Source of the DNA: Draconibacterium orientale
Lineage (GTDB): Bacteria; Bacteroidota; Bacteroidia; Bacteroidales; UBA12170
Reading direction: 5' to 3'
DNA length: 59,450 bases
NCBI GenBank assembly: GCA_020718205.1
Contig: DYSN01000007.1
Location: 1 to 59,450, forward strand
In this document: in pieces, positions 36,361 to 55,157 of the stretch
Layout of the letters: each line of letters opens with the position of its first letter
Numbering within the stretch: the stretch's first letter is position 1
Position numbers and translations under genes: made by a program
Notes under the pieces: generated by a model
What the model was told of the DNA's origin: nothing
Seen by the model: only the letters and a program-made list of their open reading frames with translations
Databases searched by the model: none

Positions 36361-37515
36361 ATGAATATAACTAATTTACATACTTATCAGGAAATTTTTC
36401 AGCAGCCAAAGTTGTGGATAGAAGTATTTGAGCTCATTCACAGCCAAAGGGTACGAGTTGAAGAATTTATTAGGGATGTTTTAGAAGATGAGTCAGCGGA
36501 TATCATTTTCACCGGAGCGGGGTCTTCTTTTTTTATTGGCGAGATGGTTGCTGGTTTATATCAGGAGAAGCTCAGGAATACCTGTCGGGCTGTTTCCACT
36601 ACCGAGCTGGTTACTCACACTCAGCAGTATATAGCTCCAACCCGTCGGCAGCTGGTAATTTCATTTGCCCGTTCAGGAAACAGTCCGGAAAGTGTTGCGG
36701 CGGTGAATTTTGTTTCGGAATACAACAGAAATACAAAGCATATTTTTATCAGTTGTAACAGTGACGGAGCCCTGGCATTGAGAGAGCCCAACCCAAACGA
36801 ACTGTTGCTTGTTTTACCCGAAAAAGCCAATGATAAGAGTTTGGCGATGACCAGCAGCGTAACCGCTATGGCATTAACAGCCTTGATAATTCTTCATTTG
36901 GATGAATATGAAACCATGAGCTGGCAGATTCAAAAGCTTTCGGATTTGGGTGGCCATTTGCTGGAAACCAAAAACGCAGATATTGCTCAAATTGCTTCAC
37001 TAAACTTTGAGAGAGCTGTATTTCTCGGTTCAGGAAGTATGATGGGATCGGCCAGAGAAGCGCATTTAAAGCTTCAGGAGCTAACCAATGGGAAAGTAAT
37101 TTGCAAGTTTGATAGTTATCTCGGCTTTCGGCATGGGCCCAAAGCTGTGGTGAATGAAAAAACGTTGATGGTCTATTTTATGACCAATAACAAATACGTA
37201 CAAGACTATGAGCTGGATTTGGTGAACACGCTCAGGGAGACTTCCGGTCCACTCTACTGTCTGGCTGTTGCTGAGATCGAAGGGTTTCGGGCTGATGTGG
37301 ATAGGGTAATAAGTTTTAATAATGACGGAGAACCACTGTGCGAGGGATTGTGGAATATTGCAGTTTTGTTGGTGGCTCAATTGCTGGCTTTTCATAAATC
37401 GTTGCAATACGATTTGAATCCTGATTCGCCCTCGGTAAATGGAAGCATTCACAGGGTAGTTCAGGGAGTTGTGATATACGAAAAAACTCAGGAAAAAATT
37501 AATACTGCCCTATGA
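36361..37515 (+). CDS. agaS: AgaS-like galactosamine-6-phosphate deaminase/isomerase (SIS domains)
   Basis: AgaS converts D-galactosamine-6-phosphate to D-tagatose-6-phosphate and ammonia. The 384-residue protein contains two SIS domains: FTGAGSSFFIGEMVAG (about 50-65) with ISFARSGNSPESVAAV, and FLGSGSMMGSAREAHLKLQEL with DSYLGFRHGPKAVV. This layout matches AgaS rather than GlmS (no glutaminase domain) or GlmD. It is the first gene of the plus-strand cluster, opposite the DeoR repressor, and overlaps the next gene by 4 bases (ATGA). Confidence 0.88.
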   Translation: MNITNLHTYQEIFQQPKLWIEVFELIHSQRVRVEEFIRDVLEDESADIIFTGAGSSFFIGEMVAGLYQEKLRNTCRAVSTTELVTHTQQYIAPTRRQLVISFARSGNSPESVAAVNFVSEYNRNTKHIFISCNSDGALALREPNPNELLLVLPEKANDKSLAMTSSVTAMALTALIILHLDEYETMSWQIQKLSDLGGHLLETKNADIAQIASLNFERAVFLGSGSMMGSAREAHLKLQELTNGKVICKFDSYLGFRHGPKAVVNEKTLMVYFMTNNKYVQDYELDLVNTLRETSGPLYCLAVAEIEGFRADVDRVISFNNDGEPLCEGLWNIAVLLVAQLLAFHKSLQYDLNPDSPSVNGSIHRVVQGVVIYEKTQEKINTAL

Positions 37516-38423
37516 TATTCGCTGTTTGTCCCAATCCTGCCATTGATACTTATTTATTTATGAATAAGTTGGAGCTGAAATCTTCGACGAGGGTTGAAAA
37601 GCTGCAGCGTTATGCGGGAGGTAAGGGAGTGCATGTTGCTTTGGCTGTGGCAGAAATGGGTTATGAGGTGAGTTTGTTGGCATTTTGGGGTGGTAGAAAT
37701 GGAGCCTGGGTTAAACAAGAGTGCGAGGAGAAAGGCATAGCGTGTTATGGGATAGAATTGGAAGGAGAAACCCGCAGTTGTTATACCCTGAAAACCAACG
37801 ATTCCTATACTGATACTGAAATTTTGGAGCCAGGCCCAACGATACAGCCTAAGGAATATGATGCGTTTTTAGCCGAATTCGAAAAGCAGGCAGCTCAAGC
37901 TAAAGTAGTGATTATGAGTGGTAGCTGGCCGCAAAATTCGCCCCAACATGCCTGGGCTGATTTGGTTACCATTTGTAACCGGTTAGATATTCCCCATATT
38001 TTAGATGCTACCGGCGTTCAACTTATGGAGGCCATGAAGAAAAGGCCATTCGGACTTCATTTGAACCGACGCGAGGCCATGGAATATTTCGGCGAGAAGC
38101 ATTTAACCGCCATACTTGATAAAACACAGGAAACCATTGCTTTAATGGCTGTGACCGATGGTAGCAAAGGACTCTATCTACGTTTTCGTGAGCATAAATA
38201 TCATTCCAATACGAAACTTGAAAATATTATAAGTGCCGTGGGCAGTGGCGATTGCCTAACAGCGGGATTGGGCATTTCGTTGCTAAATAATGAAACTGTG
38301 AAAGAAATGGCGGCCATGGCTACAGCTTGTGGAGCGGCCAATTGTTTAAGAGAAGAAATAGGGATGTTGCATCGGAGTGATGTGATGTCTTTGATAAAAA
38401 GAATAGAAATAGAGGATTTATAA
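37512..38423 (+). CDS. PfkB-family 1-phosphofructokinase / tagatose-6-phosphate kinase-like
   Basis: The 303-residue kinase begins with VCPNPAIDTYL and has YAGGKGVHVALAVAEMG and the anion-hole/catalytic motif VGSGDCLTAGL, as in the FruK/LacC subgroup. Next to agaS, the parsimonious role is phosphorylation of tagatose-6-phosphate to tagatose-1,6-bisphosphate. Fructose-1-phosphate is the alternative substrate. Its ATG overlaps the agaS stop. Confidence 0.88.
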   Translation: MIFAVCPNPAIDTYLFMNKLELKSSTRVEKLQRYAGGKGVHVALAVAEMGYEVSLLAFWGGRNGAWVKQECEEKGIACYGIELEGETRSCYTLKTNDSYTDTEILEPGPTIQPKEYDAFLAEFEKQAAQAKVVIMSGSWPQNSPQHAWADLVTICNRLDIPHILDATGVQLMEAMKKRPFGLHLNRREAMEYFGEKHLTAILDKTQETIALMAVTDGSKGLYLRFREHKYHSNTKLENIISAVGSGDCLTAGLGISLLNNETVKEMAAMATACGAANCLREEIGMLHRSDVMSLIKRIEIEDL

Positions 38424-38425
38424 AG

Positions 38426-39373
38426 ATGCAAAAGCAATACGATATATTGGTAGTTGGAGAATTGAATGTAGATTTAATTCTCAATCAGTTACCGTCGATG
38501 CCTGTGGTGGGGAAGGAAATTCTGGCCGGGCAAATGAATTTAGGTTTGGGGAGTTCATCGGCCATATTTGCCTCCAATAGTTCGAGCCTGGGAGCAAAAG
38601 TTGCCTTTGCCGGAATGGTTGGTGATGATATGTTTGGTCGGTATATTTTGGAGCAACTTCAGGCAAAATCAGTCGATACCAGTAATATTATTCAGGACGC
38701 GGAACAGAAAACAGGTGCCACCATCGTGTTTAATCAGGGCGAGGACAGAGCCATGATAACCCATCAGGGAGCCATGAGTTCGTTTGGTGTGAACCAGGTG
38801 CGGGAAGAGTTAATCTGTAATTCGCGACATCTGCATGTTTCGTCGGTTTTTCTTCAACCCCTGATACTAAAAGACATTGTTAATCTGTTTGCCAAGGCTA
38901 AAATTTGCGGATTAACCACATCGCTCGATATGCAATGGGATCCTGCGGAGAAATGGGACATCAGTCTCAAAACCCTGTTACCTTTTGTGGATGTTTTTAT
39001 GCCCAACGAGGCAGAACTATTGGCGGTAACGAAGAGTCGTGAAATTTCAGATGCGATTGCGAAATTAAGGCAAGTGGCCAAAATGGTTGTGGTAAAACAA
39101 GGAGTCCGGGGTTCTACCGCATTTTTTAAAAATACAATACATAGAGTTGATGCGGTTTTAAATACCGAAATAGTGGATGCCATTGGAGCCGGCGATAGTT
39201 TTAATGCGGGTTTTATTTCAAAATTCATCCAAAACAGCAGTATAAAAACCTGTTTGGAATACGGAAGCCTTATGGGAGCGTTGAATACCACCAGTGCGGG
39301 AGGCACGTCGGCATTTGCCAGTTATGAAGAAATAAAGAAAACGATAAAGCAAAAATTTGGAAAAGACATATAA
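38426..39373 (+). CDS. PfkB-family sugar kinase (possible galactosamine kinase)
   Basis: A second, distinct ribokinase-fold kinase of 315 residues: LVVGELNVDLIL at the start, MNLGLGSSSAIFASNSSSLG (substrate lid), and AIGAGDSFNAGF near the end. It lies 2 bases after the first kinase. The pathway needs a kinase that makes galactosamine-6-phosphate, and no ROK-type AgaK is in the cluster, so this is a candidate galactosamine or N-acetylgalactosamine kinase. The specificity is inferred from context only. Confidence 0.85.
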   Translation: MQKQYDILVVGELNVDLILNQLPSMPVVGKEILAGQMNLGLGSSSAIFASNSSSLGAKVAFAGMVGDDMFGRYILEQLQAKSVDTSNIIQDAEQKTGATIVFNQGEDRAMITHQGAMSSFGVNQVREELICNSRHLHVSSVFLQPLILKDIVNLFAKAKICGLTTSLDMQWDPAEKWDISLKTLLPFVDVFMPNEAELLAVTKSREISDAIAKLRQVAKMVVVKQGVRGSTAFFKNTIHRVDAVLNTEIVDAIGAGDSFNAGFISKFIQNSSIKTCLEYGSLMGALNTTSAGGTSAFASYEEIKKTIKQKFGKDI

Positions 39374-39377
39374 CTAC

Positions 39378-40190
39378 ATGACACTCAAAGAAAAGTACAT
39401 ACAGTTACAGGGAAAAAGTGGGGCTTTGCTGGCTACCAATTTTTACAATTTCGAAACCTTGCGTGCCGAGATGCAGGCAGCATCGAAACTTAATAAACCC
39501 ATCATTTTACAACTCACCCAAAGCAGCATAGACTATATGGGTTTAGAGAATGCACTGAATATGGGTCGAACAGCACTCAAATATTACGGAGTAGAAGGTT
39601 GGATACATCTCGACCATGGCGGTTCAGTGGAATTGGCAGAGCAATGCATAAAAGCAGGTTTCGACTCGGTGATGTTCGATGGAAGCGAGTTGCCCATGGA
39701 GCAAAATATAGAACTCACCCAAAAAGTGGTCAAAATGGCTCAGGAAAAAGGCGTTTGTGTTGAAGCTGAGCTGGGTTATGTGGCCAAATTGGGTCAATCG
39801 ACCGAAAAAATGGAATATACCTCGGCAGAAGATGCCAAAGCCTTTGCCGAAGCCACCGGCATAGATGCCTTAGCCATTGCCATTGGCACCGCCCACGGCT
39901 TTTACAAAGAAGAGCCCCGGCTCGATTTTGATCGATTGAGCGAGATAGCCGCTGCCACCAACGTGGCTTTGGTGCTACATGGCGGATCGGGTGTGCCCGA
40001 CGAGCAGGTTAGAAAAGCGGTGGAGTTGGGTATAAAAAAACTCAATGTAGCTACCGAGATTAAAAATGCATTTATGGAAAATCTCAAATATTTATTGTTG
40101 AATAACACAGAAATAGACTTGAGAAAAGTGTTTCCGCCGGCCATTTTAGCCGTTCAGAATCTGGTAGAAAGTAAATTGAATTTAGTATAA
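39378..40190 (+). CDS. Class II fructose/tagatose-bisphosphate aldolase
   Basis: The 270-residue zinc-dependent aldolase splits a ketose-1,6-bisphosphate to dihydroxyacetone phosphate and glyceraldehyde-3-phosphate. It has the metal-binding HLDHGGSVE, the FDSVMFDGSELP segment, GTAHGFY and LHGGSGVPDE. I used ATG 39378 and not TTG 39357, which would overlap the kinase gene. Position after agaS and kinase points to tagatose-1,6-bisphosphate (GatY/KbaY type), completing the galactosamine route. Confidence 0.92.
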   Translation: MTLKEKYIQLQGKSGALLATNFYNFETLRAEMQAASKLNKPIILQLTQSSIDYMGLENALNMGRTALKYYGVEGWIHLDHGGSVELAEQCIKAGFDSVMFDGSELPMEQNIELTQKVVKMAQEKGVCVEAELGYVAKLGQSTEKMEYTSAEDAKAFAEATGIDALAIAIGTAHGFYKEEPRLDFDRLSEIAAATNVALVLHGGSGVPDEQVRKAVELGIKKLNVATEIKNAFMENLKYLLLNNTEIDLRKVFPPAILAVQNLVESKLNLV

Positions 40191-40204
40191 TCAAATCCAT
40201 CATT

Positions 40205-43153
40205 ATGAGAAAATTTATATCATTAGTTTTTGTTCTTCTTCTACCGTGGCTGGCCTCGGCACAGGTTAGGGGAATTGTGTACGACGAAAACAGCAACACT
40301 CTTCCGGGGGTCAGCGTTTTAATTAAGGGGACAGAAAAAGGAGGTATCACCGACGAAAAGGGTCGTTTTAGTGTTGATGCCAAAGCCGGCGAGACGCTCA
40401 TTTTTTCTTTCATTGGCTATTTGACCCGGGAAGTTGTTTATAAAGGCGAAACCGAGCTTAAAGTCAATTTGGTACCCAATGTGGTGAGCATGGAAGAAGT
40501 GGTAGTTATGGGCTATAGCAACAAATCGAAAACTGAGGTTTCGAGTGCGGTTGTGGTTCTAAAAAACGATGAGCTTACTGATGTTAACAGCGACGACATA
40601 GGTTCTATGTTGCAAGGGAAAGTATCGGGTGTTCAGGTGGTTACAAGTAGTGGTCAGCCCGGTCAGGGTTCTCAAATCAGAATCAGGGGGATAAGCACCA
40701 TCAAGCCTGGAAATGAAGAGCCTTTATATGTGGTTGATGGTATTATTGGAGGAACTTTCGATCCAAACGATGTGGAAAGCCTCACCATTTTGAAAGATGC
40801 CGGAGCCACAGGTATGTACGGTGCCAGAGCCAATAAAGGCGTTATTGTAGTAACTACAAAAAAAGGAACCACTGATAAAACACAATTCAATTTCAACAGT
40901 AGCTGGGGTTATAAAACTGCCGACCAGGGAAAACTGAAAATGATGAACTCATCCGATTTCTATGAAATGAGCAAGGAGTTGTTTCGCGATCCCGAAACCC
41001 ATCAGATAGATGTGATTAAATTTTACAGATTTTACCCCAAAGAACTGCTCAACCGCGATTATGACTGGTTGGATGCGGCTTTTAAACCCGCTTTATCGCA
41101 GAAGTATTATCTGTCGGCCAGCCGCAAAACAAAAGATTTTTCATTCTATGCCTCTGGTAATTACTATAACGATAAAGGAACCTTCAGAAATACAGGTTAC
41201 GAGAAGATAAACCTTCGTTTGAATACAGATTATGAAGTAAATAAATTTGTGACGCTGACCAATAATGTGAGCATCAATGCCAACAGGGGAAATTACTACG
41301 ATTATATGAGCATGTATTATAGCTATCTCAATTTGCCCTGGGATAATCCATTCGATGCCAATGGTTCGCCTGTTTTTGTGGATGATAATACCGACGATTG
41401 GTGGTCGAGAGATAATATTAATCCCATGCACAGCATCGATAATTCCGATTATTCGGGTCGTGGAACCGGGTTGGATTACGATTTAATGCTCAATGTTCGC
41501 ATACTGAAGTGGTTATCGTTCAAAAGCTCTAACCGGTTATCCTATGGCAACAATAAATCGCATACATTTATTTCGCCATTGGTCGGAGGAACTTATTTTG
41601 GCAAAGGATATATCAGCGAGTCGCAAACCAATTGGTATGGATATATTTCTACCAATATGTTTAGTTTCAATTTTGAAAAAGGAAAACACAGTATCGATGG
41701 GTTGGCGGGAGTTGAAGCAAGTGCAGGATACAGCGATTTTATGAGTTTGGAAGGCTCGGGATTGCCCGAAGGTTTCGATGTGCCGGATGTGGCTTCGTCG
41801 GAGCAAACCATTGGGGGCTATAATACCACCGACTATTTTCGCTCGTTTATCTCGCAGCTTAATTATAACTACAACAAGAAATACTTTTTAACAGCATCGT
41901 ATCGTATTGATGCCACATCGAATTTTCCCCCCGATAACAGGATTGCACATTTGCCAAGTATGGCAGCATCGTGGTTAGTGAGCAACGAATCGTTTATGCA
42001 GGACCATGTAACTTTTATGGACATGCTGAAATTACGTGTTAGTTATGGAATCACTGGAGATCCGGATATTGGAGCTTCTAGATATATGGGTTTATTTGCT
42101 TTGAGCTCCAGTTACAACGGACAACCAGCAGCATTGCCCTATCAGCTTCAGAACTACGACCTTACCTGGGAAAAAACCAATGAATTGAATTTTGGATTGG
42201 ATATAAGTCTGTTTAAGCGGGTGAATATTACCTTCGATATGTACAAAAATGTGACTGAAAATCTGATAGTTCTGGTGGCTCAGCCCTTGTCGCAGGGGTT
42301 TGAATACCGATGGGAAAATGCAGGCGATGTTACCAATAAAGGAATCGAGCTGGCAATTAATGTCACCGTTTTAAAAAGTCAGAATTTTAACTGGGATTTG
42401 GGAGCCGTTTTTGGCAAGAACAGCAATGTGCTTTCGGGTGTTGGCAATCCATTTTATACCACTGTGGGTGGTGTGAGTCAGGTTTATCGCGATGGAGGAG
42501 AAATCTACACCTTTGTTTTGCCAAAATGGCTGGGAGTTGACGAGCAAACAGGAGCGCCCCTTTGGGAGAAAGTAAATGCTGATGGAAGCACCGAGGCCAC
42601 CAGTAAGTATAGCGAAGCTACTCCACAGGAAGTTGGAAATGCACTTCCTGATTTTGTGGGAGGGTTTAATACCAGCTTTACCTGGAAAGGATTGTCGCTC
42701 TATGCAAGCTTTGCCTATCAGGTTGGAAACGATGTGTACAATTCCACCCGCAGGTATATGGATCACGATGGTCATGAGCCCTATTATAATTATATGGAAT
42801 GGGATCCGGATTGGGTATTGTGGACAAAACCCGGCGATGTGGCCACACATCCCAGCTGGCAAAATGCCGAATTATCGCGCGAAAACTCATCACGCTTCTT
42901 AGAAGATGGAAGTTTTATGAAGTTGCGCAATGTGAGCATTAGCTACCAGCTACCAAAGAAATGGATTCAATCGATAAAACTGCACGATGTAACCCTGAGT
43001 CTAAGTGCCGAAAATGTGTATACCTGGACAAAATACTGGGGACAAGATCCGGAAGTGAATCTGCAGCAAGCCGATTGGTCCATGCCGGGGGTATCGGATT
43101 TTAAATATCCCAATAACAAGCAATATGTGTTTAATATTGATATAAAATTCTAA
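40205..43153 (+). CDS. SusC/RagA family TonB-linked outer-membrane transporter
   Basis: SusC-like proteins import oligosaccharides together with a SusD lid. The 982-residue protein has a signal peptide (cleavage near ASAQ), a carboxypeptidase-D-like regulatory domain (about 20-100, RGIVYDENSNTLPGVSVLI), a TonB plug with MLQGKVSGVQVVTSSGQPG and IRIRGIST, and a large barrel ending in an aromatic residue (NIDIKF). There is no FecR-like extension, so control is by the local regulator, not an anti-sigma system. It starts 14 bases after the aldolase gene. Confidence 0.95.
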   Translation: MRKFISLVFVLLLPWLASAQVRGIVYDENSNTLPGVSVLIKGTEKGGITDEKGRFSVDAKAGETLIFSFIGYLTREVVYKGETELKVNLVPNVVSMEEVVVMGYSNKSKTEVSSAVVVLKNDELTDVNSDDIGSMLQGKVSGVQVVTSSGQPGQGSQIRIRGISTIKPGNEEPLYVVDGIIGGTFDPNDVESLTILKDAGATGMYGARANKGVIVVTTKKGTTDKTQFNFNSSWGYKTADQGKLKMMNSSDFYEMSKELFRDPETHQIDVIKFYRFYPKELLNRDYDWLDAAFKPALSQKYYLSASRKTKDFSFYASGNYYNDKGTFRNTGYEKINLRLNTDYEVNKFVTLTNNVSINANRGNYYDYMSMYYSYLNLPWDNPFDANGSPVFVDDNTDDWWSRDNINPMHSIDNSDYSGRGTGLDYDLMLNVRILKWLSFKSSNRLSYGNNKSHTFISPLVGGTYFGKGYISESQTNWYGYISTNMFSFNFEKGKHSIDGLAGVEASAGYSDFMSLEGSGLPEGFDVPDVASSEQTIGGYNTTDYFRSFISQLNYNYNKKYFLTASYRIDATSNFPPDNRIAHLPSMAASWLVSNESFMQDHVTFMDMLKLRVSYGITGDPDIGASRYMGLFALSSSYNGQPAALPYQLQNYDLTWEKTNELNFGLDISLFKRVNITFDMYKNVTENLIVLVAQPLSQGFEYRWENAGDVTNKGIELAINVTVLKSQNFNWDLGAVFGKNSNVLSGVGNPFYTTVGGVSQVYRDGGEIYTFVLPKWLGVDEQTGAPLWEKVNADGSTEATSKYSEATPQEVGNALPDFVGGFNTSFTWKGLSLYASFAYQVGNDVYNSTRRYMDHDGHEPYYNYMEWDPDWVLWTKPGDVATHPSWQNAELSRENSSRFLEDGSFMKLRNVSISYQLPKKWIQSIKLHDVTLSLSAENVYTWTKYWGQDPEVNLQQADWSMPGVSDFKYPNNKQYVFNIDIKF

Positions 43154-43165
43154 TAATCAGCAGCT

Positions 43166-44689: not shown

Positions 44690-44731
44690 ACATTTATAGA
44701 TCAATTTTTAATAACTTTAAACTAAAACATT

Positions 44732-45649
44732 ATGAAAAAGAGTAATTTATTTTTTATGGCCATGCTGGTCTTAGGACTTGCCATGGTATTTAATGCATGT
44801 AAAAAAGACGACGACAAAGATCCGGTAACCATTACTGGTGAAGCTTTGTTCAGCTTTGCAGCCGATGGGAAAACTGTAACTTTTACCAACGAAAGCACCG
44901 TGAGCGGAACAGTTACCTACGAATGGAATTTTGGCGATAACGGCACATCGACCGAAAAAAATCCGGTTCACACCTACGAATTAAAAGGCGAATACACTGT
45001 TTCTCTAACAGTTAAAGACTCGCAAGGGGGCATGCATCCTGTATCGACCAAAGTTCTGGTTGACAAGAAAACCCGTATTAGTTTAACCGACAACTCAACA
45101 GCCGATTGGGATGTTGTTACCGAAGCTGGATTTGTTGTGCCCGTTGGAGATAATGCAGGTATTGTTGCTGCAGCAAAATTCGACTATGATGCCAATTTCA
45201 TCTATGCTTACCTTAAATTTGAAGGAAGTGTGAATGATGTGTTTCAGAACGATTATATGTTCGATGTGGACAACGATAGTTTAACAGGTGCAAAATCGTG
45301 GTTATGGCCGGCATCGGGTGTTGATTATTTGGTAGAAGTTGCACCATTTACCGGTGAGCAAACTGTATTTACATTTATTTATTCCGGAGCTCCCGGCGCA
45401 AACGAGTGGAGTTGGGCCGAAGAACAGTGGTCGGCCGGAGCCTATATTTTAGGCTCAGTGAAACAAGATGGTAACTACGTGGTAGCCGAGCTTGGTTTCG
45501 ACCGTGAGAAAGTACCAGGCCTGAATGCTGACGTGGTTGGAATTGGTAATTTTCTAAGCAATGCCGACTGGGCAGAGGTGGGTTTTATTCCCGATGCAAC
45601 ACAAGAAGGTGGCTCTAATCAAACTTGTTTTATTCTCGATATGAGATAG
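44732..45649 (+). CDS. PKD-domain surface lipoprotein (SusE/F-position)
   Basis: The 305-residue lipoprotein has lipobox FNAC (Cys23) and a Lys/Asp-rich leader after it, KKDDDKD, resembling a surface-export signal of Bacteroidota lipoproteins. A PKD domain (about 35-110, TYEWNFGDNGTSTEKNPVHTY) is followed by a second beta-sandwich (about 115-305, ADWDVV, YDANFIYAYLKF, FDVDNDSLTG) that resembles CBM9/DOMON-type modules. It occupies the third position after SusC/D, where SusE-like glycan-binding proteins usually lie. It is followed by a strong terminator, so it may close the transcript. Confidence 0.85.
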   Translation: MKKSNLFFMAMLVLGLAMVFNACKKDDDKDPVTITGEALFSFAADGKTVTFTNESTVSGTVTYEWNFGDNGTSTEKNPVHTYELKGEYTVSLTVKDSQGGMHPVSTKVLVDKKTRISLTDNSTADWDVVTEAGFVVPVGDNAGIVAAAKFDYDANFIYAYLKFEGSVNDVFQNDYMFDVDNDSLTGAKSWLWPASGVDYLVEVAPFTGEQTVFTFIYSGAPGANEWSWAEEQWSAGAYILGSVKQDGNYVVAELGFDREKVPGLNADVVGIGNFLSNADWAEVGFIPDATQEGGSNQTCFILDMR

Positions 45650-45702
45650 AAAAAATGGATTTTCATAGAGTTAAAAATGATAGATTGTAAAAAATTGGTA
45701 GA

Positions 45703-45739: not shown

Positions 45740-45770
45740 AAATCAACAAATCAGATTAAAAGAATATAAA

Positions 45771-48700: not shown

Positions 48701-48920
48701 CAGGGAATCAGCTAAAATTGAGTTATATAGTCTGGCTCCACAAAAGGTGGACATCCGGTTGGTAAACCATCAGGGTGCGGAGATTATGAATGTTTTTTCG
48801 GGAGAATTGGACAAACAAAAGTTTATTTTCATTCATAGAGAAAATCTTGCAAATGGAGTTTATTACCTGCAGTTGGTGGGAAAGAAAAAAACTATTAACA
48901 AAAAACTGATATTTATTTAA
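45771..48920 (+). CDS. T9SS-exported DUF4832/DUF4874-type barrel protein with beta-sandwich and sorting domains
   Basis: The 1049-residue exported protein has a signal peptide (ending near FSQ) and an N-terminal TIM-barrel-like DUF4874/DUF4832 module (about 30-440). A CBM9/DOMON-like beta-sandwich follows (about 475-620, HIDGQPDDWSQIQP), then an Fn3-like region, a second such sandwich (about 735-820), another Fn3-like part, and a type A T9SS C-terminal sorting domain (about 960-1049, KVFPNPFRESAKIELY). Residue E157 in VQAGFIGTWGEW is a candidate catalytic acid. It is likely a glycoside hydrolase of an uncharacterised family; the bond cleaved is unknown. No close promoter is seen after the terminator upstream. 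Confidence 0.85.
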   Translation: MKKSIIKSMMVLSVSMLLQQSIFSQTQIFYQSIDSIFGNPERGFYHANPSLEFDDLQNMVHNEFISIAYHNFAIDEFKNTFIAPWYLAKMNNDFAKMRKGGVKAVVRFTYTEKDSPPYGDAPIDIVLNHIAQVAPILQNNADVILAVQAGFIGTWGEWYYTDYYSSSPGHITEEQMGWRRQIVHALLQATPDRMVQVRTPIFKKEMVPLDDFMPVPETHAFQNTAWARIAHHNDCFLASTTDYGTYQNIDLEKGYLADDSKFTMVGGETCNDNSLSECENALVEMERFHWTYLNRDYHSGVFGQWIDGGCYEEIQKRLGYRYRLISAQLTNESKPGGAVNVQLKLFNDGFANVMNTRDVKIILRNSENGEEYSALIDTDPRFWPLHDTISLSMEAGLPNAITGAIYNVFLSLPDPAITLRNNPDYSIRLANEGIYEKSTAHHSLLHNILISQENNVSTYEGENFFIGNQGEIPTGIHIHIDGQPDDWSQIQPSIVSGNSLTSLRLWNTTDSLYFALSGVNIDQNWQFFINSDFDTTTGYQSPHWNASGADLLIENGILLSYEGSGNDWNWSELGDVEYSQTNSFLEFSLPRVHEEMVSLAGKIGLAIISGFDEMTTAGFLPSVNRSFLHYKLSVLTEAPQFIHVLNVAEKAIVYWPLTAPTAGVNAELQRSLNGGGWENVFTTLNAHQLAYTDETLETGNLVAYRVRYTGGENRTPFTTSETVEIGGLGESYADIELDGDSSDWMVLEPLMAEYKSSKLVLRTFNNSTRFFFSIAADEINSYEFFVSNTSTDLYKIANDSLFEKSDDNWLFRHMIEAVRGNGFMEASFGWNQLFDESHTSFLVHLTMNDQPIVRGELFYMLKYSTLAMPQNFQVLPSIDNPYGNIRIKWRLNTANNGYVLQRSEGDSLHFAPYKTFGSNDFYYLDQDLDSSRVYYYRLFAHDGIIRSPYTATRWLQPNGISELDEFETDMKVFPNPFRESAKIELYSLAPQKVDIRLVNHQGAEIMNVFSGELDKQKFIFIHRENLANGVYYLQLVGKKKTINKKLIFI

Positions 48921-48942
48921 ACAACAGATATAGAATCTATTA

Positions 48943-49809
48943 ATGAAGAAACTGTGGCTTATTTACGCGCTGGTGACTACCCTGTTCTGGGGTGTTTGGG
49001 GCGCACTCTCCGAGATACCGGCAAAAGCCGGATTTCCGGGCACATTAATCTATGTGGTTTGGGCTTTAACCATGATTGTTCCAGCAATTGTTGCATTACA
49101 ACTTGTAGGATGGAAGCTTGACAGAGATAAAAAATCTGTGTGGCTGGGGCTCATTATTGGGTTCACAGGAGCCGGCGGACAACTGGCATTGCTCACAGGA
49201 GCTATTGTAAACGGGCCAGCTTATTTAATCTTCCCCATTATTTCGTTATCCCCAGTGATTACCATTTTGCTTTCGGTTTTCTTTTTGGGGGAAAAAGCCG
49301 GTTGGACAGGTTGGATTGGTATTGCATTGGCCCTTATTGCCATTCCATTCCTATCCTATCAGGATGGCACAACAGGGAGTGGAGGTTATGGCTGGTTGAT
49401 TTTTGCTCTTATTGTTTTTATGGCCTGGGGCTTACAAGCCTATTTCATGAAAAAAGCCAATGGAGTGATGAAAGCTGAAAGTATTTTTTTCTATATGACA
49501 TTAACCGGCCTGCTGCTTGCTCCCATTGCCTTATATATGACCGACTGGAGCCAAGCCATAAACTACGATTTCAATGGCCCCTATCTAAGTTTTGGAATTC
49601 AATTGCTCAACTCCATTGGAGCATTAACCATTGTATATGCCTTCCGCCACGGGAAAGCCATGGTAGTAAGCCCGCTAACCAATGCGGTGGCACCCGTGAT
49701 TACGGTAATTATCTCGCTGCTGATATATCATCGGTTCCCCCATCATTTCATTCTTACCGGCATGTTGCTGGCGGTTTTTTCCATGTTTTTATTGTCGTTC
49801 GAAGATTAA
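48943..49809 (+). CDS. EamA/DMT-superfamily transporter
   Basis: The 288-residue protein has about ten transmembrane helices in two EamA repeats (first ending about 140; LLGLIIGFTGAGGQLALL-like and GALTIVYAFRHGKAM segments). Members move small metabolites, amino acids or sugars. Within this locus a role in importing a released monosaccharide across the inner membrane is plausible. It starts 22 bases after the T9SS protein and the next gene begins 4 bases after its stop, so it is co-transcribed. Confidence 0.88.
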   Translation: MKKLWLIYALVTTLFWGVWGALSEIPAKAGFPGTLIYVVWALTMIVPAIVALQLVGWKLDRDKKSVWLGLIIGFTGAGGQLALLTGAIVNGPAYLIFPIISLSPVITILLSVFFLGEKAGWTGWIGIALALIAIPFLSYQDGTTGSGGYGWLIFALIVFMAWGLQAYFMKKANGVMKAESIFFYMTLTGLLLAPIALYMTDWSQAINYDFNGPYLSFGIQLLNSIGALTIVYAFRHGKAMVVSPLTNAVAPVITVIISLLIYHRFPHHFILTGMLLAVFSMFLLSFED

Positions 49810-49813
49810 AACA

Positions 49814-51328
49814 ATGTCGTTTATGAAATGTACAGCATTAGTTTTTCTGGCTATTTTATTGACCAATAGTGTTATAGCTCAGCAGAAAGATGATTTTATC
49901 GAAATTGAAATCAATCAGGAGATAACTGAAGTACAGCCCATGACCGGCGTTGTTTTCTGGCAAGACAGTCATACCAATACCGATGCCATTAGTCTCGAAT
50001 TCTCCTATATGCTTTATAACGATGTGGTTACAGACAGTGGCGTTTATAATTGGGATGTGGTAGAAGAAAAGCTGAATGATATTGCATCGCGCAATCATCA
50101 GGCGGTTTTCCGATTTAGGGATACCTATGTAGGTCGTCAGACATCGGTGCCCGAATATATTAAGGCTTTGCCCGATTATCATGAAACCATGGGTTTGTCC
50201 GAAGGGCGCGAAACCTGGTTCTCCGATTGGCGACACGACGAATTGAAGCGGTTTATTCTGGAGTTTAATACCGAGTTTGCGAGCCATTACGACAACGATC
50301 CCCGTCTGGCATTTGTGCAAGTGGGCTTTGGTCTGTGGGCCGAATACCATATTTACGATGGACCTTTTCAATTGGGGGTTACTTTTCCCGATAAAGAATT
50401 CCAGACCGCCTTTTTTCATCACATCGATTCTGTGTGGCAGAACAAGTTTTTTAGCATTTCTATTGATGCTGCGGACGATACCTATTCCCCTTTCGATGAG
50501 CATCCCGAACTTCTCAATATCAGGTTTGGGCTTTTCGACGATAGTTTTATGAGCGATTCGCATTCGGGTTATAATGAGAGCTGTTGGAATTTTTTCGATA
50601 GAAACCGCTTTAAAATTGCTCCTGCGGGGGGAGAATTCAATTACTACACCAACTACGATCAGCAGCATGTGCTCGACTGGCCCTATGGCGCCCATGGCGA
50701 ATCGTTTGAAAGTTTTAGCGCAAGGTTTCATATAAGCTATATGATTGGTGCCGACCAGCCAGATTATCAAACCATGGAAAGAATAAAAGAAGCAAGTATG
50801 GCCACCGGGTATCGGTTTAAAATTGTTTCTTTTAGGGCATCAGCCGATTCATCGGTCGTTCAAATTATCAACGAAGGCGACGCCCCAATATATTATGATG
50901 CCTGGCCAACAGCGAATGGAGTTAGAGCTGTAGAATCGCTCAAATATCTTCAGGACGATGAAATCAGGGAATTTCATATTTCGTCCGGAGGCTCCAATCC
51001 GGTTTTTACCATAGAGAGCGACGCTATTTTGTCCACCCAAACCATTGGTTATTATGGGACTTTAAATTCGCATGTGTATGAAAATCAAAAAATAGATTGG
51101 ATAAAAATTTATCCAAACCAGGTTGCAAAAGGCAATGCAGTTCATTTAAAAACACATAACAATCAAGGGGTGTATGTTGAAATATATGAGCTATCGGGTC
51201 GCGCAATCTTGTCGACTGATTTTAAAAATGAGTATCAAATAGTTACAAGTGATTTACATAGCGGTATGTATTTTGTTAAAGTAACACAAGGAAGCTTGTC
51301 GGATTTGTTTAAAATTGTGATTATTTAA
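49814..51328 (+). CDS. T9SS-exported putative glycoside hydrolase related to the DUF4832-type barrel
   Basis: The 504-residue protein has a signal peptide (ending near VIAQ) and a TIM-barrel-like domain (about 45-340). This includes the segment VQVGFGLWAEYH with E177 in the same setting as E157 of the 1049-residue neighbour. A small beta-sandwich follows, then a T9SS type A sorting domain (about 430-504, KIYPNQVAKGNAVHL). The two proteins probably share a fold and a catalytic glutamate, but the pairing is my own comparison. MSFMKC may start at the second Met. Confidence 0.78.
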   Translation: MSFMKCTALVFLAILLTNSVIAQQKDDFIEIEINQEITEVQPMTGVVFWQDSHTNTDAISLEFSYMLYNDVVTDSGVYNWDVVEEKLNDIASRNHQAVFRFRDTYVGRQTSVPEYIKALPDYHETMGLSEGRETWFSDWRHDELKRFILEFNTEFASHYDNDPRLAFVQVGFGLWAEYHIYDGPFQLGVTFPDKEFQTAFFHHIDSVWQNKFFSISIDAADDTYSPFDEHPELLNIRFGLFDDSFMSDSHSGYNESCWNFFDRNRFKIAPAGGEFNYYTNYDQQHVLDWPYGAHGESFESFSARFHISYMIGADQPDYQTMERIKEASMATGYRFKIVSFRASADSSVVQIINEGDAPIYYDAWPTANGVRAVESLKYLQDDEIREFHISSGGSNPVFTIESDAILSTQTIGYYGTLNSHVYENQKIDWIKIYPNQVAKGNAVHLKTHNNQGVYVEIYELSGRAILSTDFKNEYQIVTSDLHSGMYFVKVTQGSLSDLFKIVII

Positions 51329-51370
51329 AAGCAAGCTGACTCTTGGGGAAGTGGAGAAAAAGGACAATAT

Positions 51371-51480
51371 GAACCATATAGAAACACAGAGAAACTACTA
51401 TGTGCCCTATGTACCCTATGTGCCTATGTTTTTAAAAAAGAATAAACTATGAGCCTTATGTGTCTATTTGATTAAAAAAG
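51371..51480. repeat. Decayed copy of the palindromic ACCACATAG-type repeat
   Basis: The stretch AACCATATAGAAACACAGAG (51372-51391) and the ACTATGTGCCCTATGTACCC and CTATGAGCCTTATGTG pieces (about 51397-51464) resemble the tandem repeat at 59239-59416, with several substitutions. A second partial copy follows (51441-51480). It lies between the T9SS protein and the GH36-like gene; the GH36-like ATG comes 8 bases after it. Confidence 0.7.
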
Positions 51481-51488
51481 CGAAAAAC

Positions 51489-53522
51489 ATGAAAAACTTA
51501 ATCTTATTATTCATTACCTTTTGGCTAATCTCCTGTAAATCAGAAAATCTGCAAGTGGTACATCACGGAAATCTGACTATTCAGATTAACTCCAAAATGC
51601 AAACACAGGTTCTTAAATCGGAGCGGGTAATTTCGAGTTGGAATCATAGTGAACGCATTAATTCCTCCGAACTAAAATCTTACGACTTCGAGCTGAAATC
51701 AGGGGAGAGAAACGAATTTACTGATAAAATAGGCTCAGGCATGGTAAATGAATATCTGGGGGAATCGGTCGAGAAACCGGGAATATTTAAAAAGCTCATT
51801 ATAAAAACATATGTCGGTTTTCCGGGGATAGCCATCTTTAGCGTGGTGTATTACAATAAGTTAGTGGATGATTTTGTGGTTAAAGGATGGCTAAATCATA
51901 ATTATCGCATACAACAAAATGATAAAGACAGCTTATTCTGGTCCTTTCAGGGAAGCTCAACGGAGGAGCGTGCCGATTGGATTTTACCTGTTGCGCCAGG
52001 GTTTCAAAAGCAGAATTATATGGGAATGAATAATTCCGATTATGGGGGAGGGATACCCGTTCTCGATATTTGGCGAAGAGATGCCGGAATTGCTATTGGT
52101 CACATGTCGCTCACTCCGGAACTGGTTTCGTTTCCGGTGAGCTATGGTGTAAATACCGAGATTGCTGAGATTTCACTGCAAAGAGCTTTTAATGACCCAG
52201 TTATACTTCACCCCGGCGATTCTTTGTGTGCGATAGAAAGTTTTGTTATGGTACATGAGGGCGATTGTTTCGAGCCACTGAGCATGTATACGCAAATGAT
52301 TCAAGCCAAGGGAATTGAATTTGCTCCCATTGAAGAGTTGGCCTACGAACCAGCCTGGTGCGCCTGGGGTTACGAACGTGAATTTACAGTGGATGAAATA
52401 CTGGGAACTTTGCCCAAAGTGAAAGAGCTGGGTTTTAAATGGGCTATATTGGACGATGGTTATCAGCAAGCCGAAGGTGATTGGATGGTGAACAATTCCA
52501 AATTCCCGGGTGGAGAAAAGCAAATGAAAGATTTGGTGGAAGCTATTCATAAGCAAGGGCTTAAAGCTCAAATTTGGTGGGCTCCTTTGGCGGTGGATTC
52601 CAATGCGGCTTTGCTTAAACAATATCCGCAGATACTTTTGAAGAATAAAGATGATTCCAATCAACAAATTACCTGGTGGGATAGTTGGTATATGTCGCCT
52701 ATGGCATCCGAAACCAAAGCCCACACCGCAGAAACCGTTAAAATGTTGCTCGGTGAATGGGGTTTCGATGGGTTAAAGCTCGATGGGCAGCATTTGAATT
52801 CTATACCCCCCGATTTCAATCCTACATTGCAATTGACAAATGCTGATGATGCTGTTAAAAACTTCCCCATGTTTTTTAAAGATTTGTATCAAACCGCAAC
52901 AGCTATTAACCCCAATGCGGTGATTCAAAACTGCCCCTGCGGCTGTTGCATGAGCTATTTCAATATGCCTTATATGAATCAGGCAGTTAGCTCCGATCCA
53001 ACAAGCAGCTGGCAAATAAGGCTTAAGGGAAAGGTTTATAAAGCGCTCATTGGCAAAACAGCTTATTATGGCGATCATGTTGAGTTGAGCGATGGTGGTG
53101 ATGATTTTGCTTCGTCCTTTGGGATTGGGGCTGTTTTGGGCAGTAAATTCACCTGGCCAAAAGACAACCCAAAAGCCAGTGGAAAGTTCGTTCTAACTCC
53201 TGAAAAAGAAGTTGTTTGGAAAAAATGGCTTCAGCTTTACAACGAAAAAATGCTTCCGAAAGCCGATTATCTGGGGAATCTCTATGACATAGGTTTCGAT
53301 AAACCCGAGACCCATGTTCTGCAAAAAGGCGATACTTTATTCTATGCTTTTTATGCACCCCAATGGGATGATGAAATAGAAATCAGGGGGTTGGATAAAA
53401 GTCAAATTTATATGGCATTTGATTATTTCAATGGCATTGACATTGGTTCAATTGATGGCTCAAACCCCAAAATTCGTGTTTCGTTTAATAAATTTCTGCT
53501 GATTGAAGTCAGAAAAAAATAG
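51489..53522 (+). CDS. GH36/GH-D clan glycosidase lipoprotein (alpha-galactosidase or alpha-galactosaminidase)
   Basis: The 677-residue lipoprotein (Cys16 in LISC) has a beta-sandwich N-terminal domain, a TIM barrel with FKWAILDDGYQ (about 316-326), KLDG with candidate nucleophile Asp432, and SSDPTSSW with candidate acid/base Asp503, as in clan GH-D. I chose ATG 51489 rather than TTG 51468. It is lipid-anchored, so probably periplasmic or surface-exposed. The substrate may be alpha-linked galactose or galactosamine; the second is favoured by AgaS in the same locus but cannot be read from sequence. Confidence 0.85.
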   Translation: MKNLILLFITFWLISCKSENLQVVHHGNLTIQINSKMQTQVLKSERVISSWNHSERINSSELKSYDFELKSGERNEFTDKIGSGMVNEYLGESVEKPGIFKKLIIKTYVGFPGIAIFSVVYYNKLVDDFVVKGWLNHNYRIQQNDKDSLFWSFQGSSTEERADWILPVAPGFQKQNYMGMNNSDYGGGIPVLDIWRRDAGIAIGHMSLTPELVSFPVSYGVNTEIAEISLQRAFNDPVILHPGDSLCAIESFVMVHEGDCFEPLSMYTQMIQAKGIEFAPIEELAYEPAWCAWGYEREFTVDEILGTLPKVKELGFKWAILDDGYQQAEGDWMVNNSKFPGGEKQMKDLVEAIHKQGLKAQIWWAPLAVDSNAALLKQYPQILLKNKDDSNQQITWWDSWYMSPMASETKAHTAETVKMLLGEWGFDGLKLDGQHLNSIPPDFNPTLQLTNADDAVKNFPMFFKDLYQTATAINPNAVIQNCPCGCCMSYFNMPYMNQAVSSDPTSSWQIRLKGKVYKALIGKTAYYGDHVELSDGGDDFASSFGIGAVLGSKFTWPKDNPKASGKFVLTPEKEVVWKKWLQLYNEKMLPKADYLGNLYDIGFDKPETHVLQKGDTLFYAFYAPQWDDEIEIRGLDKSQIYMAFDYFNGIDIGSIDGSNPKIRVSFNKFLLIEVRKK

Positions 53523-53600
53523 GATTAAAATGTGTTGATAAAACCCAGGTATAAGGAGTTTTGAAAAGCATCACGGGCAATTCAAAAGAAATTGAGTCAT

Positions 53601-55157
53601 CTATTTGGTCAATACACGAATTATTCCTGTTTCCCCTTGAATATCGAGCCCTTTTAGTTTTACATATAATTTCTTGGCTGCTTGGTCGAAGGTAATGTCA
53701 ACCAATTCTATAGCATCATTCTCCGAAATTATTTCCAGGGGCTTATCAAGACCGGAAATTTCAATGGTTTGTTTTCCATAAATCCGTGCCCGAAAACTAA
53801 ATTCCCCCGCTTTTTCAGTTGTTGAATAAATTAGGTAGCTATCGGTGTGGTTGATAAATGTTTTGGGGAGATTTGCTCCCAACCGATAAATGAGCTCATA
53901 TTTTTTGGCATCTAATTGCGCAAGCTCAATAAATCCATAGCCAGCTTCTTCATAATATGAAACCATGGATATACCATTCAACATGGCATATTGCACATGC
54001 TCGGCGGGCTTTAGGGCAATTTTTAAGACCAGGGTACTCAATAAATGATTTTTATAAACTTCATTCGGCATGGCACTATTGTCAATCAATATTTTACCGG
54101 GTTCGGACTCAATTGTTTTGGTGTATTTTTGATATAGCCATTGACTGTAAAATTGTTCGGTGTTTTTGGCAATATAGCGGTTTGGAATTTGTTGAACCAT
54201 CCGAAAATAGTTTATCCAGTTTTTATTGGTTTCGGTTTGGAGAAAATCATCCTGAGCCAGCCAATTGCTCCAGTGCGACTCTATCATATCCGATTCTTGC
54301 TGCTCCACAGGAATTGTTGGGAGCGAAGATAAGGCATACCAGGGGTTTCCGTAGTTTATGCGATTCACCACCAAAACGCCATGGTCAATTCCTCCACCGT
54401 TGGGCTCGCCGGGCGGATTGAGTTCACTTACTTCGGCAAACAAGGTATTTGTAAATTTTACACCTTCAGGTTTCAGCATGGTTCCTGTACTGTAATCTCC
54501 TGCTGGATTCCAGTGATAGCTGTAAGCGCAGGGTACAAAACTTTCAGGGAAACTGTGTCCTTTATCTGGCGAAATACCATACTGTCTCATGATGAGTTTA
54601 AAAGCTTCGATGTGCAAAGCTATTTCTTGCCCAGGCCAGGGTTCATTGTCATCGGTATTATACCATTCGGCTCTACGTCTTTGGCCATTCTCGAGCCAGA
54701 ATTCATGTCCCACTCCGTGCAACCCAAATTCTAAAAAGGCTGCATTTTCTTTTATATAAGCCATTATAGAATCAGCTTCATTTGAATTGATATAGATATT
54801 GTCCCAGTTTTTCCCCATTTTTGTGGTGCTGGGATAGTTTTTTAAAATGTTCTCCTTGTCAAACTCCGAAAGAATAAACAAGCCCTGAATTCGGATATTT
54901 AAAGAATCGGCAATGGCCACAATACACGCATAGTCATTTAGTCCCATTTTTCTGTTTAAACCAATTCTGTAGGGCCCGTTTAACCCATCATAACCCTCAT
55001 TATTGCCAATATTCCACCCCAAATCGTCAATGGCAAATGCAAAGGGTCTGGGAAAAATAACACCCCCTTTTTTTTCAATTATTTCATTTTGTCCATGAAT
55101 CTGAAAACTAACCAATAAAACAAGTAAACAAGAAAAACAAACATTTAAAAATTTCAT
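53601..55157 (-). CDS. Secreted NodB-like polysaccharide deacetylase candidate
   Basis: The 518-residue protein has a signal peptide (cleavage near HGQ) and, in its N-terminal half, AIDDLG (D44, D45) and FGLHGVGHEFW (H147, H151). These resemble the Asp-His-His metal site of NodB-like (CE4) deacetylases: TFDDG and H-x3-H. Spacing is about 100 residues, longer than the usual 50. The C-terminal half (about 330-518) is beta-rich, possibly a binding domain. The gene is convergent to the GH36-like gene and has its own -7 element. I would call it deacetylase-like with moderate confidence. Confidence 0.65.
   Translation of the reverse strand: MKFLNVCFSCLLVLLVSFQIHGQNEIIEKKGGVIFPRPFAFAIDDLGWNIGNNEGYDGLNGPYRIGLNRKMGLNDYACIVAIADSLNIRIQGLFILSEFDKENILKNYPSTTKMGKNWDNIYINSNEADSIMAYIKENAAFLEFGLHGVGHEFWLENGQRRRAEWYNTDDNEPWPGQEIALHIEAFKLIMRQYGISPDKGHSFPESFVPCAYSYHWNPAGDYSTGTMLKPEGVKFTNTLFAEVSELNPPGEPNGGGIDHGVLVVNRINYGNPWYALSSLPTIPVEQQESDMIESHWSNWLAQDDFLQTETNKNWINYFRMVQQIPNRYIAKNTEQFYSQWLYQKYTKTIESEPGKILIDNSAMPNEVYKNHLLSTLVLKIALKPAEHVQYAMLNGISMVSYYEEAGYGFIELAQLDAKKYELIYRLGANLPKTFINHTDSYLIYSTTEKAGEFSFRARIYGKQTIEISGLDKPLEIISENDAIELVDITFDQAAKKLYVKLKGLDIQGETGIIRVLTK

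What the first reader, a model, noticed from the sequence alone, without database searches (positions are those of the whole stretch)
36361..55157. Utilization locus combining galactosamine catabolism, SusCD and T9SS-exported barrel enzymes
Seen: agaS, two PfkB kinases, class II aldolase, SusC, SusD, PKD lipoprotein, two T9SS-exported barrel proteins, EamA permease, GH36-like lipoprotein, and a NodB-like candidate, all beside a DeoR/AgaR-type repressor. Known: AgaS, tagatose-6-phosphate kinase and tagatose-bisphosphate aldolase form the D-galactosamine route. Inferred: the target is an alpha-linked glycan containing galactosamine or N-acetylgalactosamine, for example a galactosaminogalactan- or Pel-like polymer, or alpha-GalNAc-capped glycans. 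No chondroitin lyase or sulfatase is present, which argues against glycosaminoglycans.
Basis: partly seen in the sequence, partly recalled or inferred. Interest (0 to 1): 0.75.

Follow-up and report, generated by a model that had tools for sequence, protein, structure and literature searches.

The report
Galactosamine-polymer eating gene cluster
A Bacteroidota gene cluster that very probably lets the cell cut up, import and burn sticky galactosamine-rich slimes such as Pel or fungal galactosaminogalactan, a diet for which no such cluster turned up in the papers searched.

Summary
In detail: 36361-55157 carries agaS, two PfkB kinases, a class II aldolase, SusC/SusD, a PKD lipoprotein, two T9SS-tailed barrel enzymes, EamA, a GH36 lipoprotein and a convergent NodB-like gene, beside an AgaR-like repressor (35386-36162). 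The GH36 is nearest, among solved structures, to FpGalNase (alpha-galactosaminidase; E about 1e-62, other GH36 3e-14 or weaker) and keeps three residues whose mutation nearly kills FpGalNase. The large barrel is DUF4874-DUF4832; a DUF4832 enzyme of a streptococcal pel operon disperses Pel aggregates in print. NagA/AgaA and the EII-Sor PTS permease were not found in the genome, pointing to free galactosamine and a kinase. With the GH36 as bait, agaS lies nearby in 36 of 80 loci, each time with the second PfkB, and a DUF4832-type gene in 39 of 80; none in 20 control stretches. Relatives swap the first PfkB for GatZ/KbaZ or add GH109. Against: DUF4832 as bait finds agaS in 2 of 19 neighbourhoods, so that family is broader. 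Best reading: a PUL for alpha-linked galactosamine polymers with a deacetylate-then-cleave step and a PTS-free, PfkB-kinase galactosamine route. All activities are inferred.

The parts
35386..36162 (-). DeoR-family repressor, AgaR-like, divergent from agaS
   Evidence: PF00455, PF08220; NCBIfam AgaR best hit 250.5 bits, cut-off 260
36345..36352 (+). candidate operator A[AT]CGAAAG just upstream of agaS
   Evidence: motif picked from these intergenics and then found in 9 of 26, shuffles mean 0.55, largest 3; but 8 occurrences in the whole window and the 9-mer AACGAAAGA occurs once against 0.78 expected: weak
36361..37515 (+). agaS, galactosamine-6-phosphate deaminase/isomerase (to tagatose-6-phosphate)
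   Evidence: TIGR02815 338.8 bits, cut-off 529.2; PDB 3odp E 9e-80
37512..38423 (+). PfkB kinase 1, LacC/FruK type: tagatose-6-phosphate kinase candidate
   Evidence: TIGR03168 213.7 bits, cut-off 216.4; GatZ/KbaZ takes its slot in relatives
38426..39373 (+). PfkB kinase 2, ribokinase type: galactosamine kinase candidate
   Evidence: IolC 141.5, ribokinase 130.3, tagatose kinase 114.7 bits, all under cut-off; present in 36 of 36 agaS-bearing GH36 loci
39357..40190 (+). class II ketose-bisphosphate aldolase (tagatose/fructose bisphosphate not distinguishable)
   Evidence: PF01116; TIGR00167 239.2 over cut-off 215.6
40205..43153 (+). SusC/RagA TonB-dependent transporter
   Evidence: TIGR04056 727.9 bits, over cut-off
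43166..44689 (+). SusD glycan-binding lipoprotein
   Evidence: PF07980, PF14322
44732..45649 (+). PKD lipoprotein, candidate surface glycan-binding protein; C-terminal module shared with the DUF4832 enzyme
   Evidence: PF18911; hhalign of the two module families prob 98.8, E 1e-16
45771..48920 (+). secreted DUF4874-DUF4832 glycoside hydrolase candidate with T9SS tail (proposed to cut alpha-GalN/GalNAc polymer)
   Evidence: PF16173, PF16116 (1e-63), PF18962; DUF4832 enzyme SIR_1591 disperses Pel aggregates (PMC12345266, passages)
48943..49809 (+). EamA/DMT permease, candidate inner-membrane galactosamine importer
   Evidence: PF00892; found in 27 of 80 related loci
49814..51328 (+). second secreted barrel protein with T9SS tail, remote DUF4832 relative
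   Evidence: PF18962; AF2 pLDDT 86.2, Foldseek hits are barrel glycosidases at low TM-scores; relatives reach PF16116 at 25.2 and 29.0 bits, both under the 29.2 cut-off
51468..53522 (+). GH36 lipoprotein, FpGalNase-like exo-alpha-galactosaminidase candidate (likely start about 51489)
   Evidence: PDB FpGalNase chains E 2e-62 and 8x1b E 1e-63; equivalents of D463, C513, D532 in 78 of 78 relatives
53601..55157 (-). secreted NodB/CE4-type deacetylase candidate (proposed to de-N-acetylate GalNAc residues)
   Evidence: D44 D45 H147 H151 invariant in 21 sequences; AF2 pLDDT 89.8; CE4 2cc0 prob 1.00, TM 0.57 by target, rank 44; in 21 of 80 related loci
55161..55168 (-). same operator-like motif after a TATATTTG promoter-like box upstream of the deacetylase gene
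   Evidence: post hoc, weak

Best explanation
A polysaccharide utilization locus for alpha-linked galactosamine/N-acetylgalactosamine polymers of the Pel or galactosaminogalactan kind. Proposed steps: (1) the two T9SS-exported DUF4832-type barrels cut the polymer outside the cell; (2) the PKD lipoprotein and SusD hold, and SusC imports, the fragments; (3) the NodB-type enzyme removes acetyl groups; (4) the GH36 lipoprotein releases galactosamine from the chain end, as FpGalNase does after FpGalNAcDeAc; (5) EamA carries galactosamine through the inner membrane; (6) PfkB kinase 2 makes galactosamine-6-phosphate, AgaS turns it into tagatose-6-phosphate and ammonia, PfkB kinase 1 makes tagatose-1,6-bisphosphate and the aldolase splits it; (7) the AgaR-like protein represses all this until the sugar appears. 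Shown here: gene content, conserved linkage, kept residues, no NagA/AgaA or EII-Sor match in the genome. Inferred: every activity, the order of steps, the polymer.
For: GH36 nearest to FpGalNase among solved structures: 218.5 bits (8x1b, titled alpha-galactosidase by its depositors but almost the same sequence in the printed alignments) and 214.4 bits (9awt, FpGalNase) against 55.5 for the next chain. Equivalents of FpGalNase D463, C513 and D532, whose mutants are nearly inactive (PMC11762096, first part of the text), are kept in 78 of 78 relatives (residue numbers mapped by hand, offset 26, and the Lys-x-Asp stretch realigned by eye). DUF4832 enzyme of a pel operon disperses Pel aggregates (PMC12345266, passages), and DUF4832 genes are accessory in streptococcal and clostridial pel operons (PMC7112168, passages). 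NagA/AgaA (TIGR00221): 0 matches in a 99.08% complete genome, 14 of 14 control genomes ring; agaS without agaA is a published mark of galactosamine as against GalNAc use (PMC5583593, passages). EII-Sor PTS permease: 0 matches, 3 of 14 controls ring. Linkage: agaS 36, pfkB2 45, aldolase 42, SusC 48, DUF4832-type 39, EamA 27, NodB 21 of 80 GH36 loci; in 20 control stretches only SusC (2) and PKD (1). GatZ/KbaZ, shown in E. coli to be a C4-epimerase of fructose-6-P/tagatose-6-P (PMC11907403, passages), sits in the slot of PfkB 1 in relatives. GH109 in 10 of 80 GH36 loci and 11 of 17 other agaS loci, 0 of 20 controls. PKD lipoprotein and DUF4832 enzyme share a module. All four other genomes of the phylum draw that have both agaS and DUF4832 hold them on one contig, at most about 32 kb apart (places).
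Against: DUF4832 is wider than this system: as bait it finds agaS in 2 of 19 stretches and a strong GH36 in 2 of 19, though 7 of 19 have agaS, the GH36 or GH109; it also occurs in a Klebsiella capsule cluster and a Ruminococcus dockerin protein (passages). FpGalNase Y464, whose mutation lowers activity, is Gly in all 78 relatives, so specificity may differ. The second barrel matches DUF4832 only weakly (hhalign prob 24). Eleven of 36 agaS loci have neither LacC type nor GatZ, leaving part of step 6 open there. None of the proteins scanned matched a known endo-galactosaminidase family. For the NodB model Foldseek ranks GH98 and AlfB fucosidase first, at TM-scores of 0.37 or less; CE4 comes at rank 44 with E 5e-3. 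The genome has 6.23% estimated contamination and 393 contigs. PTS families other than EII-Sor were not searched.
Confidence: 0.6

Rival explanations
1. The locus feeds on alpha-GalNAc-capped glycoconjugates (mucin or blood-group-A-like O-glycans, bacterial O-antigens) and not on a galactosamine polymer; deacetylase plus GH36 work as the Flavonifractor pair does on the A antigen.
For: FpGalNase and FpGalNAcDeAc were characterised on the A antigen; GH109 enzymes occur in related loci.
Against: A DUF4832 barrel is tied in print to a Pel polymer; record titles of relatives name marine genera (Maribacter, Aquimarina; habitat recalled), a reactor bin and a water-buffalo omasum bin, so a host is not needed; Pfam found no fucosidase, sialidase or hexosaminidase among the window's locus proteins.
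Confidence: 0.2
2. The polymer is a mixed heteropolysaccharide (for example a Gal/GalN capsule or exopolysaccharide) and galactosamine is only one part of it.
For: GH31 in L045 and a cluster of seven loci, GH123 in L031; DUF4832 in a Klebsiella capsule cluster; galactosaminogalactan itself contains galactose (recalled).
Against: The window's locus holds no other sugar's catabolic genes and no further known hydrolase family.
Confidence: 0.15
3. The GH36 is an ordinary alpha-galactosidase or beta-L-arabinopyranosidase and the aga genes serve another, separate sugar.
For: GH36/Melibiase domain; weak NCBIfam hit to a beta-L-arabinopyranosidase (23.3 bits, cut-off 1100); the top structure 8x1b is titled alpha-galactosidase.
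Against: 8x1b is nearly the FpGalNase sequence and both beat the next GH36 by about 160 bits; tight linkage of this GH36 clade with agaS.
Confidence: 0.05

Closest known systems
Aga/Gam galactosamine pathway of enterobacteria and streptococci (AgaS, tagatose-6-P kinase, tagatose-bisphosphate aldolase, AgaR)
   Same: AgaS, a LacC-type kinase, class II aldolase and an AgaR-like repressor in one cluster
   Different: No EII-Sor permease and no NagA/AgaA match in the genome; a second PfkB is the likely sugar kinase; joined to SusC/D and secreted hydrolases
FpGalNAcDeAc/FpGalNase pair of Flavonifractor plautii
   Same: A deacetylase candidate and a GH36 with the equivalents of D463, C513, D532
   Different: Separate subclade (Y464 is Gly), deacetylase of NodB type (FpGalNAcDeAc was not compared here), set in a PUL
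SIR_1591, DUF4832 hydrolase of the Streptococcus intermedius pel operon
   Same: DUF4832 domain; beta-amylases and beta-galactosidases are among the structural hits of the second barrel, as is said of SIR_1591
   Different: SIR_1591 belongs to the producer of Pel; here the enzymes carry T9SS tails and sit in a degradation locus; SIR_1591's sequence could not be fetched for comparison
Endo-alpha-1,4-galactosaminidases GH114, GH135, GH166, GH191
   Same: Expected substrate class; TmGH191 is hit 48 of the second barrel (TM 0.54 by target)
   Different: No sequence match to these families; TmGH191 itself showed no activity in print, Env-GH191 did
GH109-linked agaS clusters of Bacteroidota
   Same: agaS - LacC/GatZ - PfkB 2 - aldolase core, complete in 10 of 17 stretches
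   Different: GH109 in 11 of 17 and, where tested, a sodium:solute symporter; GH36 in only 2 of 17

Membership tests
Polysaccharide utilization locus (SusC/SusD type) | adjacent SusC and SusD genes with carbohydrate-active enzymes | tested here: met
Polysaccharide utilization locus (SusC/SusD type) | co-regulation by the glycan | not testable with these tools
   only an operator-like motif in 9 of 26 intergenics, post hoc
Galactosamine (Gam) catabolic pathway | AgaS present | tested here: met
   below the TIGR02815 cut-off, but best hit and AgaS-type structures on top
Galactosamine (Gam) catabolic pathway | AgaA/NagA absent (galactosamine, not GalNAc) | tested here: met
   0 matches at E 0.001 in own genome, 14 of 14 controls ring
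Galactosamine (Gam) catabolic pathway | PTS importer of the Aga/Gam (EII-Sor) type | tested here: not met
   a kinase must stand in
FpGalNase-type GH36 | GH36 domain with equivalents of D463, D532 and the second Cys of CxCG | tested here: met
   78 of 78
FpGalNase-type GH36 | Tyr at 464 | tested here: not met
   Gly in 78 of 78
FpGalNase-type GH36 | activity on alpha-galactosamine | not testable with these tools
   none
DUF4832 glycoside hydrolases | PF16173/PF16116 domains over cut-off | tested here: met
   45771-48920; the second barrel 49814-51328 itself has no PF16116 hit, its relatives weak ones
CE4/NodB deacetylases | Asp-Asp and HxxxH motif | tested here: met
   invariant in 21 sequences; the motif's meaning is recalled
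CE4/NodB deacetylases | NodB fold | tested here: inconclusive
   2cc0 prob 1.00, TM 0.57 by target, but rank 44 and E 5e-3
CE4/NodB deacetylases | match to a Pfam deacetylase model | tested here: not met
   no Pfam or NCBIfam hit
T9SS cargo | C-terminal sorting domain | tested here: met
   PF18962 in both barrels

The most novel reading that the evidence does not exclude
A widespread, undescribed class of Bacteroidota utilization loci that eat galactosamine exopolysaccharides (Pel of bacterial biofilms, galactosaminogalactan of fungi), bringing a DUF4832-type hydrolase pair, a new NodB-type GalNAc deacetylase family, a new GH36 galactosaminidase subclade and a PfkB-family galactosamine kinase.
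Probability: 0.45. Interest if true: 0.75.

Novelty: new variant of a known kind. Interest (0 to 1): 0.6.

Why it matters
Galactosamine is described as an integral part of bacterial and fungal extracellular polymers (PMC11014887, title and abstract start in the listing), and Pel and galactosaminogalactan are matrix polymers of medical note, yet no utilization locus for them came up in the papers listed. If right, the locus supplies enzymes that take such biofilms apart, a candidate importer and kinase for galactosamine without a PTS, and a genomic marker for organisms that recycle this material.

Tried and rejected
Glycosaminoglycan target: no lyase or sulfatase among the locus proteins; ten other window proteins scanned, none a sulfatase; the rest of the window and genome were not scanned for them. 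Self-made Pel: PF11997 (its link to PelF is recalled) has no match in the genome, with only 1 of 14 controls ringing, so turnover of the cell's own Pel is unlikely, not excluded. Close kinship of the two barrels: whole-protein hhalign found only the shared T9SS tail, the trimmed comparison is weak. Secreted Amidohydro_2 gene of relatives as a stand-in for NodB: in loci of 8 kb or more both in 5, NodB alone 14, amidohydrolase alone 30, neither 19, of 68 (one-sided Fisher p 0.01); p 0.04 over all 80, 0.014 at 12 kb, 0.07 at 15 kb or more; relatedness not corrected, so only a lead. Genome-level co-occurrence of agaS and DUF4832: 4 of 394 other genomes have both, agaS in 19, DUF4832 in 16, Fisher p 0.005, relatedness not corrected. 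The operator motif was chosen from the same sequences in which it was then counted, and its 9-mer is not enriched in the window. The paper listings were cut: 20 of 97, 20 of 818, 15 of 24, 15 of 181.
Full report
WHAT IS THERE. In order: AgaR-like repressor (minus strand), agaS, PfkB 1 (LacC/FruK type), PfkB 2 (ribokinase type), class II aldolase, SusC, SusD, PKD lipoprotein, DUF4874-DUF4832 protein with a T9SS tail, EamA permease, second T9SS-tailed protein, GH36 lipoprotein, and a convergent NodB-like gene. The genome (G000) is a 4.1 Mb assembly in 393 contigs, 99.08% complete with 6.23% contamination. Two of the four genomes drawn from that genus carry the GH36 at E 1e-40 or better, so the locus looks accessory.

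THE HYDROLASES. The GH36 protein matches FpGalNase (9awt), the alpha-galactosaminidase of Flavonifractor plautii, at E 2e-62, and 8x1b, titled alpha-galactosidase but almost the same sequence in the printed alignment, at 1e-63; the next chain is at 3e-14. FpGalNase residues D463, C513 and D532, whose mutants are nearly inactive (PMC11762096, first part of the text), correspond to residues kept in 78 of 78 relatives; Y464, whose mutant is impaired too, is Gly in all. I mapped the numbers by hand from the alignment (offset 26 fits all four) and realigned the Lys-x-Asp stretch by eye. The large secreted protein is DUF4874-DUF4832. In Streptococcus intermedius a DUF4832 protein of the pel operon, SIR_1591, is a hydrolase that disperses Pel aggregates, and that Pel is GalNAc-rich (PMC12345266, passages); DUF4832 genes are named as accessory genes of streptococcal and clostridial pel operons (PMC7112168, passages). 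The second secreted protein has no catalytic-domain Pfam hit. Its AlphaFold model (pLDDT 86.2, pTM 0.73) hits cyclodextrin glycosyltransferases and an alpha-amylase first, then beta-amylases, GH35 beta-galactosidases, PslG, GH36 and, at rank 48, TmGH191; query TM-scores are 0.37 or less, so this says barrel glycosidase and no more. Relatives from G066 and G109 reach DUF4832 at 25.2 and 29.0 bits against a cut-off of 29.2, and a trimmed profile comparison with the DUF4832 group is collinear over 217 columns but weak (prob 24). The PKD lipoprotein and the DUF4832 enzyme share a C-terminal module (hhalign of 24 and 12 relatives' modules, prob 98.8, E 1e-16), as expected if both hold the same glycan.

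THE DEACETYLASE. The 53601-55157 protein has no family hit, but D44, D45, H147 and H151 are invariant in 21 sequences, and the model (pLDDT 89.8) aligns to a CE4 esterase (2cc0, prob 1.00, TM 0.57 by target, E 5e-3, rank 44); the higher-ranked GH98, AlfB fucosidase and other hits have TM-scores of 0.37 or less. It directly follows the GH36 on the same strand in 18 of the 21 related loci that have it (my count from the rows). In the window it is convergent, with a promoter-like box and an operator-like motif before it, which is weak evidence.

THE CATABOLIC ROUTE. AgaS without AgaA marks galactosamine rather than GalNAc use (PMC5583593, passages). NagA/AgaA has no match in the genome, nor has the EII-Sor PTS permease (other PTS families not searched), so free galactosamine would need a kinase. 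Of the kinase genes I profiled, PfkB 2 is in all 36 agaS-bearing GH36 loci; GatZ/KbaZ is in 22 and the LacC type in 1 of the 32 agaS loci of 15 kb or more. GatZ/KbaZ was confirmed by Pfam in the two examples scanned, in the slot of PfkB 1. GatZ/KbaZ is a C4-epimerase between fructose-6- and tagatose-6-phosphate (PMC11907403, passages), so PfkB 1 fits tagatose-6-phosphate kinase and PfkB 2 fits galactosamine kinase (inference). Eleven of 36 agaS loci have neither GatZ nor LacC type; a general phosphofructokinase might serve there (inference).

CONSERVATION. A draw of 295 genomes of the order found the GH36 in 11, the window's own included. Of the eight other genomes with 45% identity or more, seven have the agaS cluster beside it and the eighth sits on a 4.9 kb contig; the two at 40% do not show it. 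A scan of named genomes found 528 relatives, 80 kept, mostly titled Bacteroidota (Bacteroidales, Saprospiraceae, Cyclobacteriaceae, Flavobacteriales and others) with single records titled Chlorobi, Caldithrix, KSB1 and Rickettsiales. Isolates with agaS beside the GH36 include Maribacter orientalis, Prolixibacter bellariivorans, Alkaliflexus imshenetskii, Reichenbachiella faecimaris and Barnesiella sp. An55 (L068, L075, L081, L082, L088). Among the 80, at 60 bits or more: deoR 30, agaS 36, pfkB 2 45, aldolase 42, GatZ 27, LacC type 3, SusC 48, SusD 37, PKD lipoprotein 35, DUF4832-type 39, EamA 27, NodB 21, Amidohydro_2 39; 52 of the 80 are 15 kb or more, and many are cut by contig ends. Profiles were built from the window and from loci, seven of which recur among the 80. 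Twenty control stretches of 20 kb from three of the genomes had SusC in 2, PKD in 1 and nothing else of these.

REVERSE TESTS. With DUF4832 as bait in 395 genomes of the phylum, 17 have it, the window's own included. In 19 stretches from the other 16 genomes agaS is near in 2 and a strong GH36 in 2; GH109 is near in 5; 7 of 19 have at least one of the three. So DUF4832 is not confined to this system. With agaS as bait, 20 of 395 genomes have it. Four other genomes have both agaS and DUF4832 (G303, G452, G402, G465), each time on one contig; in G402 and G465 they are about 18 and 32 kb apart, outside my stretches. In 17 further agaS stretches the full core agaS - LacC/GatZ - PfkB 2 - aldolase stands in 10; the rest lack one or more members or are cut by contig ends; 2 of 17 have the GH36 and 11 of 17 have GH109. 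The core thus looks like a general galactosamine/GalNAc module, and the window is its GH36-DUF4832-deacetylase branch.

JUDGEMENT. The target is almost surely an alpha-linked galactosamine-containing glycan (my estimate 0.85); a Pel- or galactosaminogalactan-like polymer is the best guess (about 0.55 to 0.6). Searches of the open paper library for DUF4832 (4 papers, passages of all four seen), for galactosaminogalactan or galactosaminidase with SusD (one paper each), and for Pel or galactosamine with utilization loci (cut listings) showed no description of such a locus; papers outside that library or below the cut were not seen. It is a known kind of thing (a PUL) with a new predicted diet and several uncharacterised enzyme families.

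Noticed in passing
L022:234-1325 and related loci: A secreted Amidohydro_2 protein of about 360 aa stands between the aldolase and the GH36 in 29 of 80 related loci (my count; family) and tends to be absent where the NodB gene is present; a candidate periplasmic GalNAc deacetylase of another fold.
   Followed up: partly
L194, L196-L199, L202-L205, L207, L210: Other agaS clusters of the phylum carry GH109 and, in L194 where tested, a sodium:solute symporter and a different Amidohydro_2 protein: probably a GalNAc-eating sister system.
   Followed up: partly
L161, L162, L163, L165, L166: DUF4832 genes next to SusC/SusD and the PKD lipoprotein but with no agaS in the stretch; GH109 is near in L162, L165 and L166. 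A second setting of this hydrolase family.
   Followed up: partly
window 51329-51467: Short degenerate repeats (variants of CCTATGTG) in the gap between the second barrel and the GH36 gene.
   Followed up: no
window 17111-20816: Two neighbouring AMP-binding (acyl-CoA synthetase-like) genes on the minus strand.
   Followed up: no
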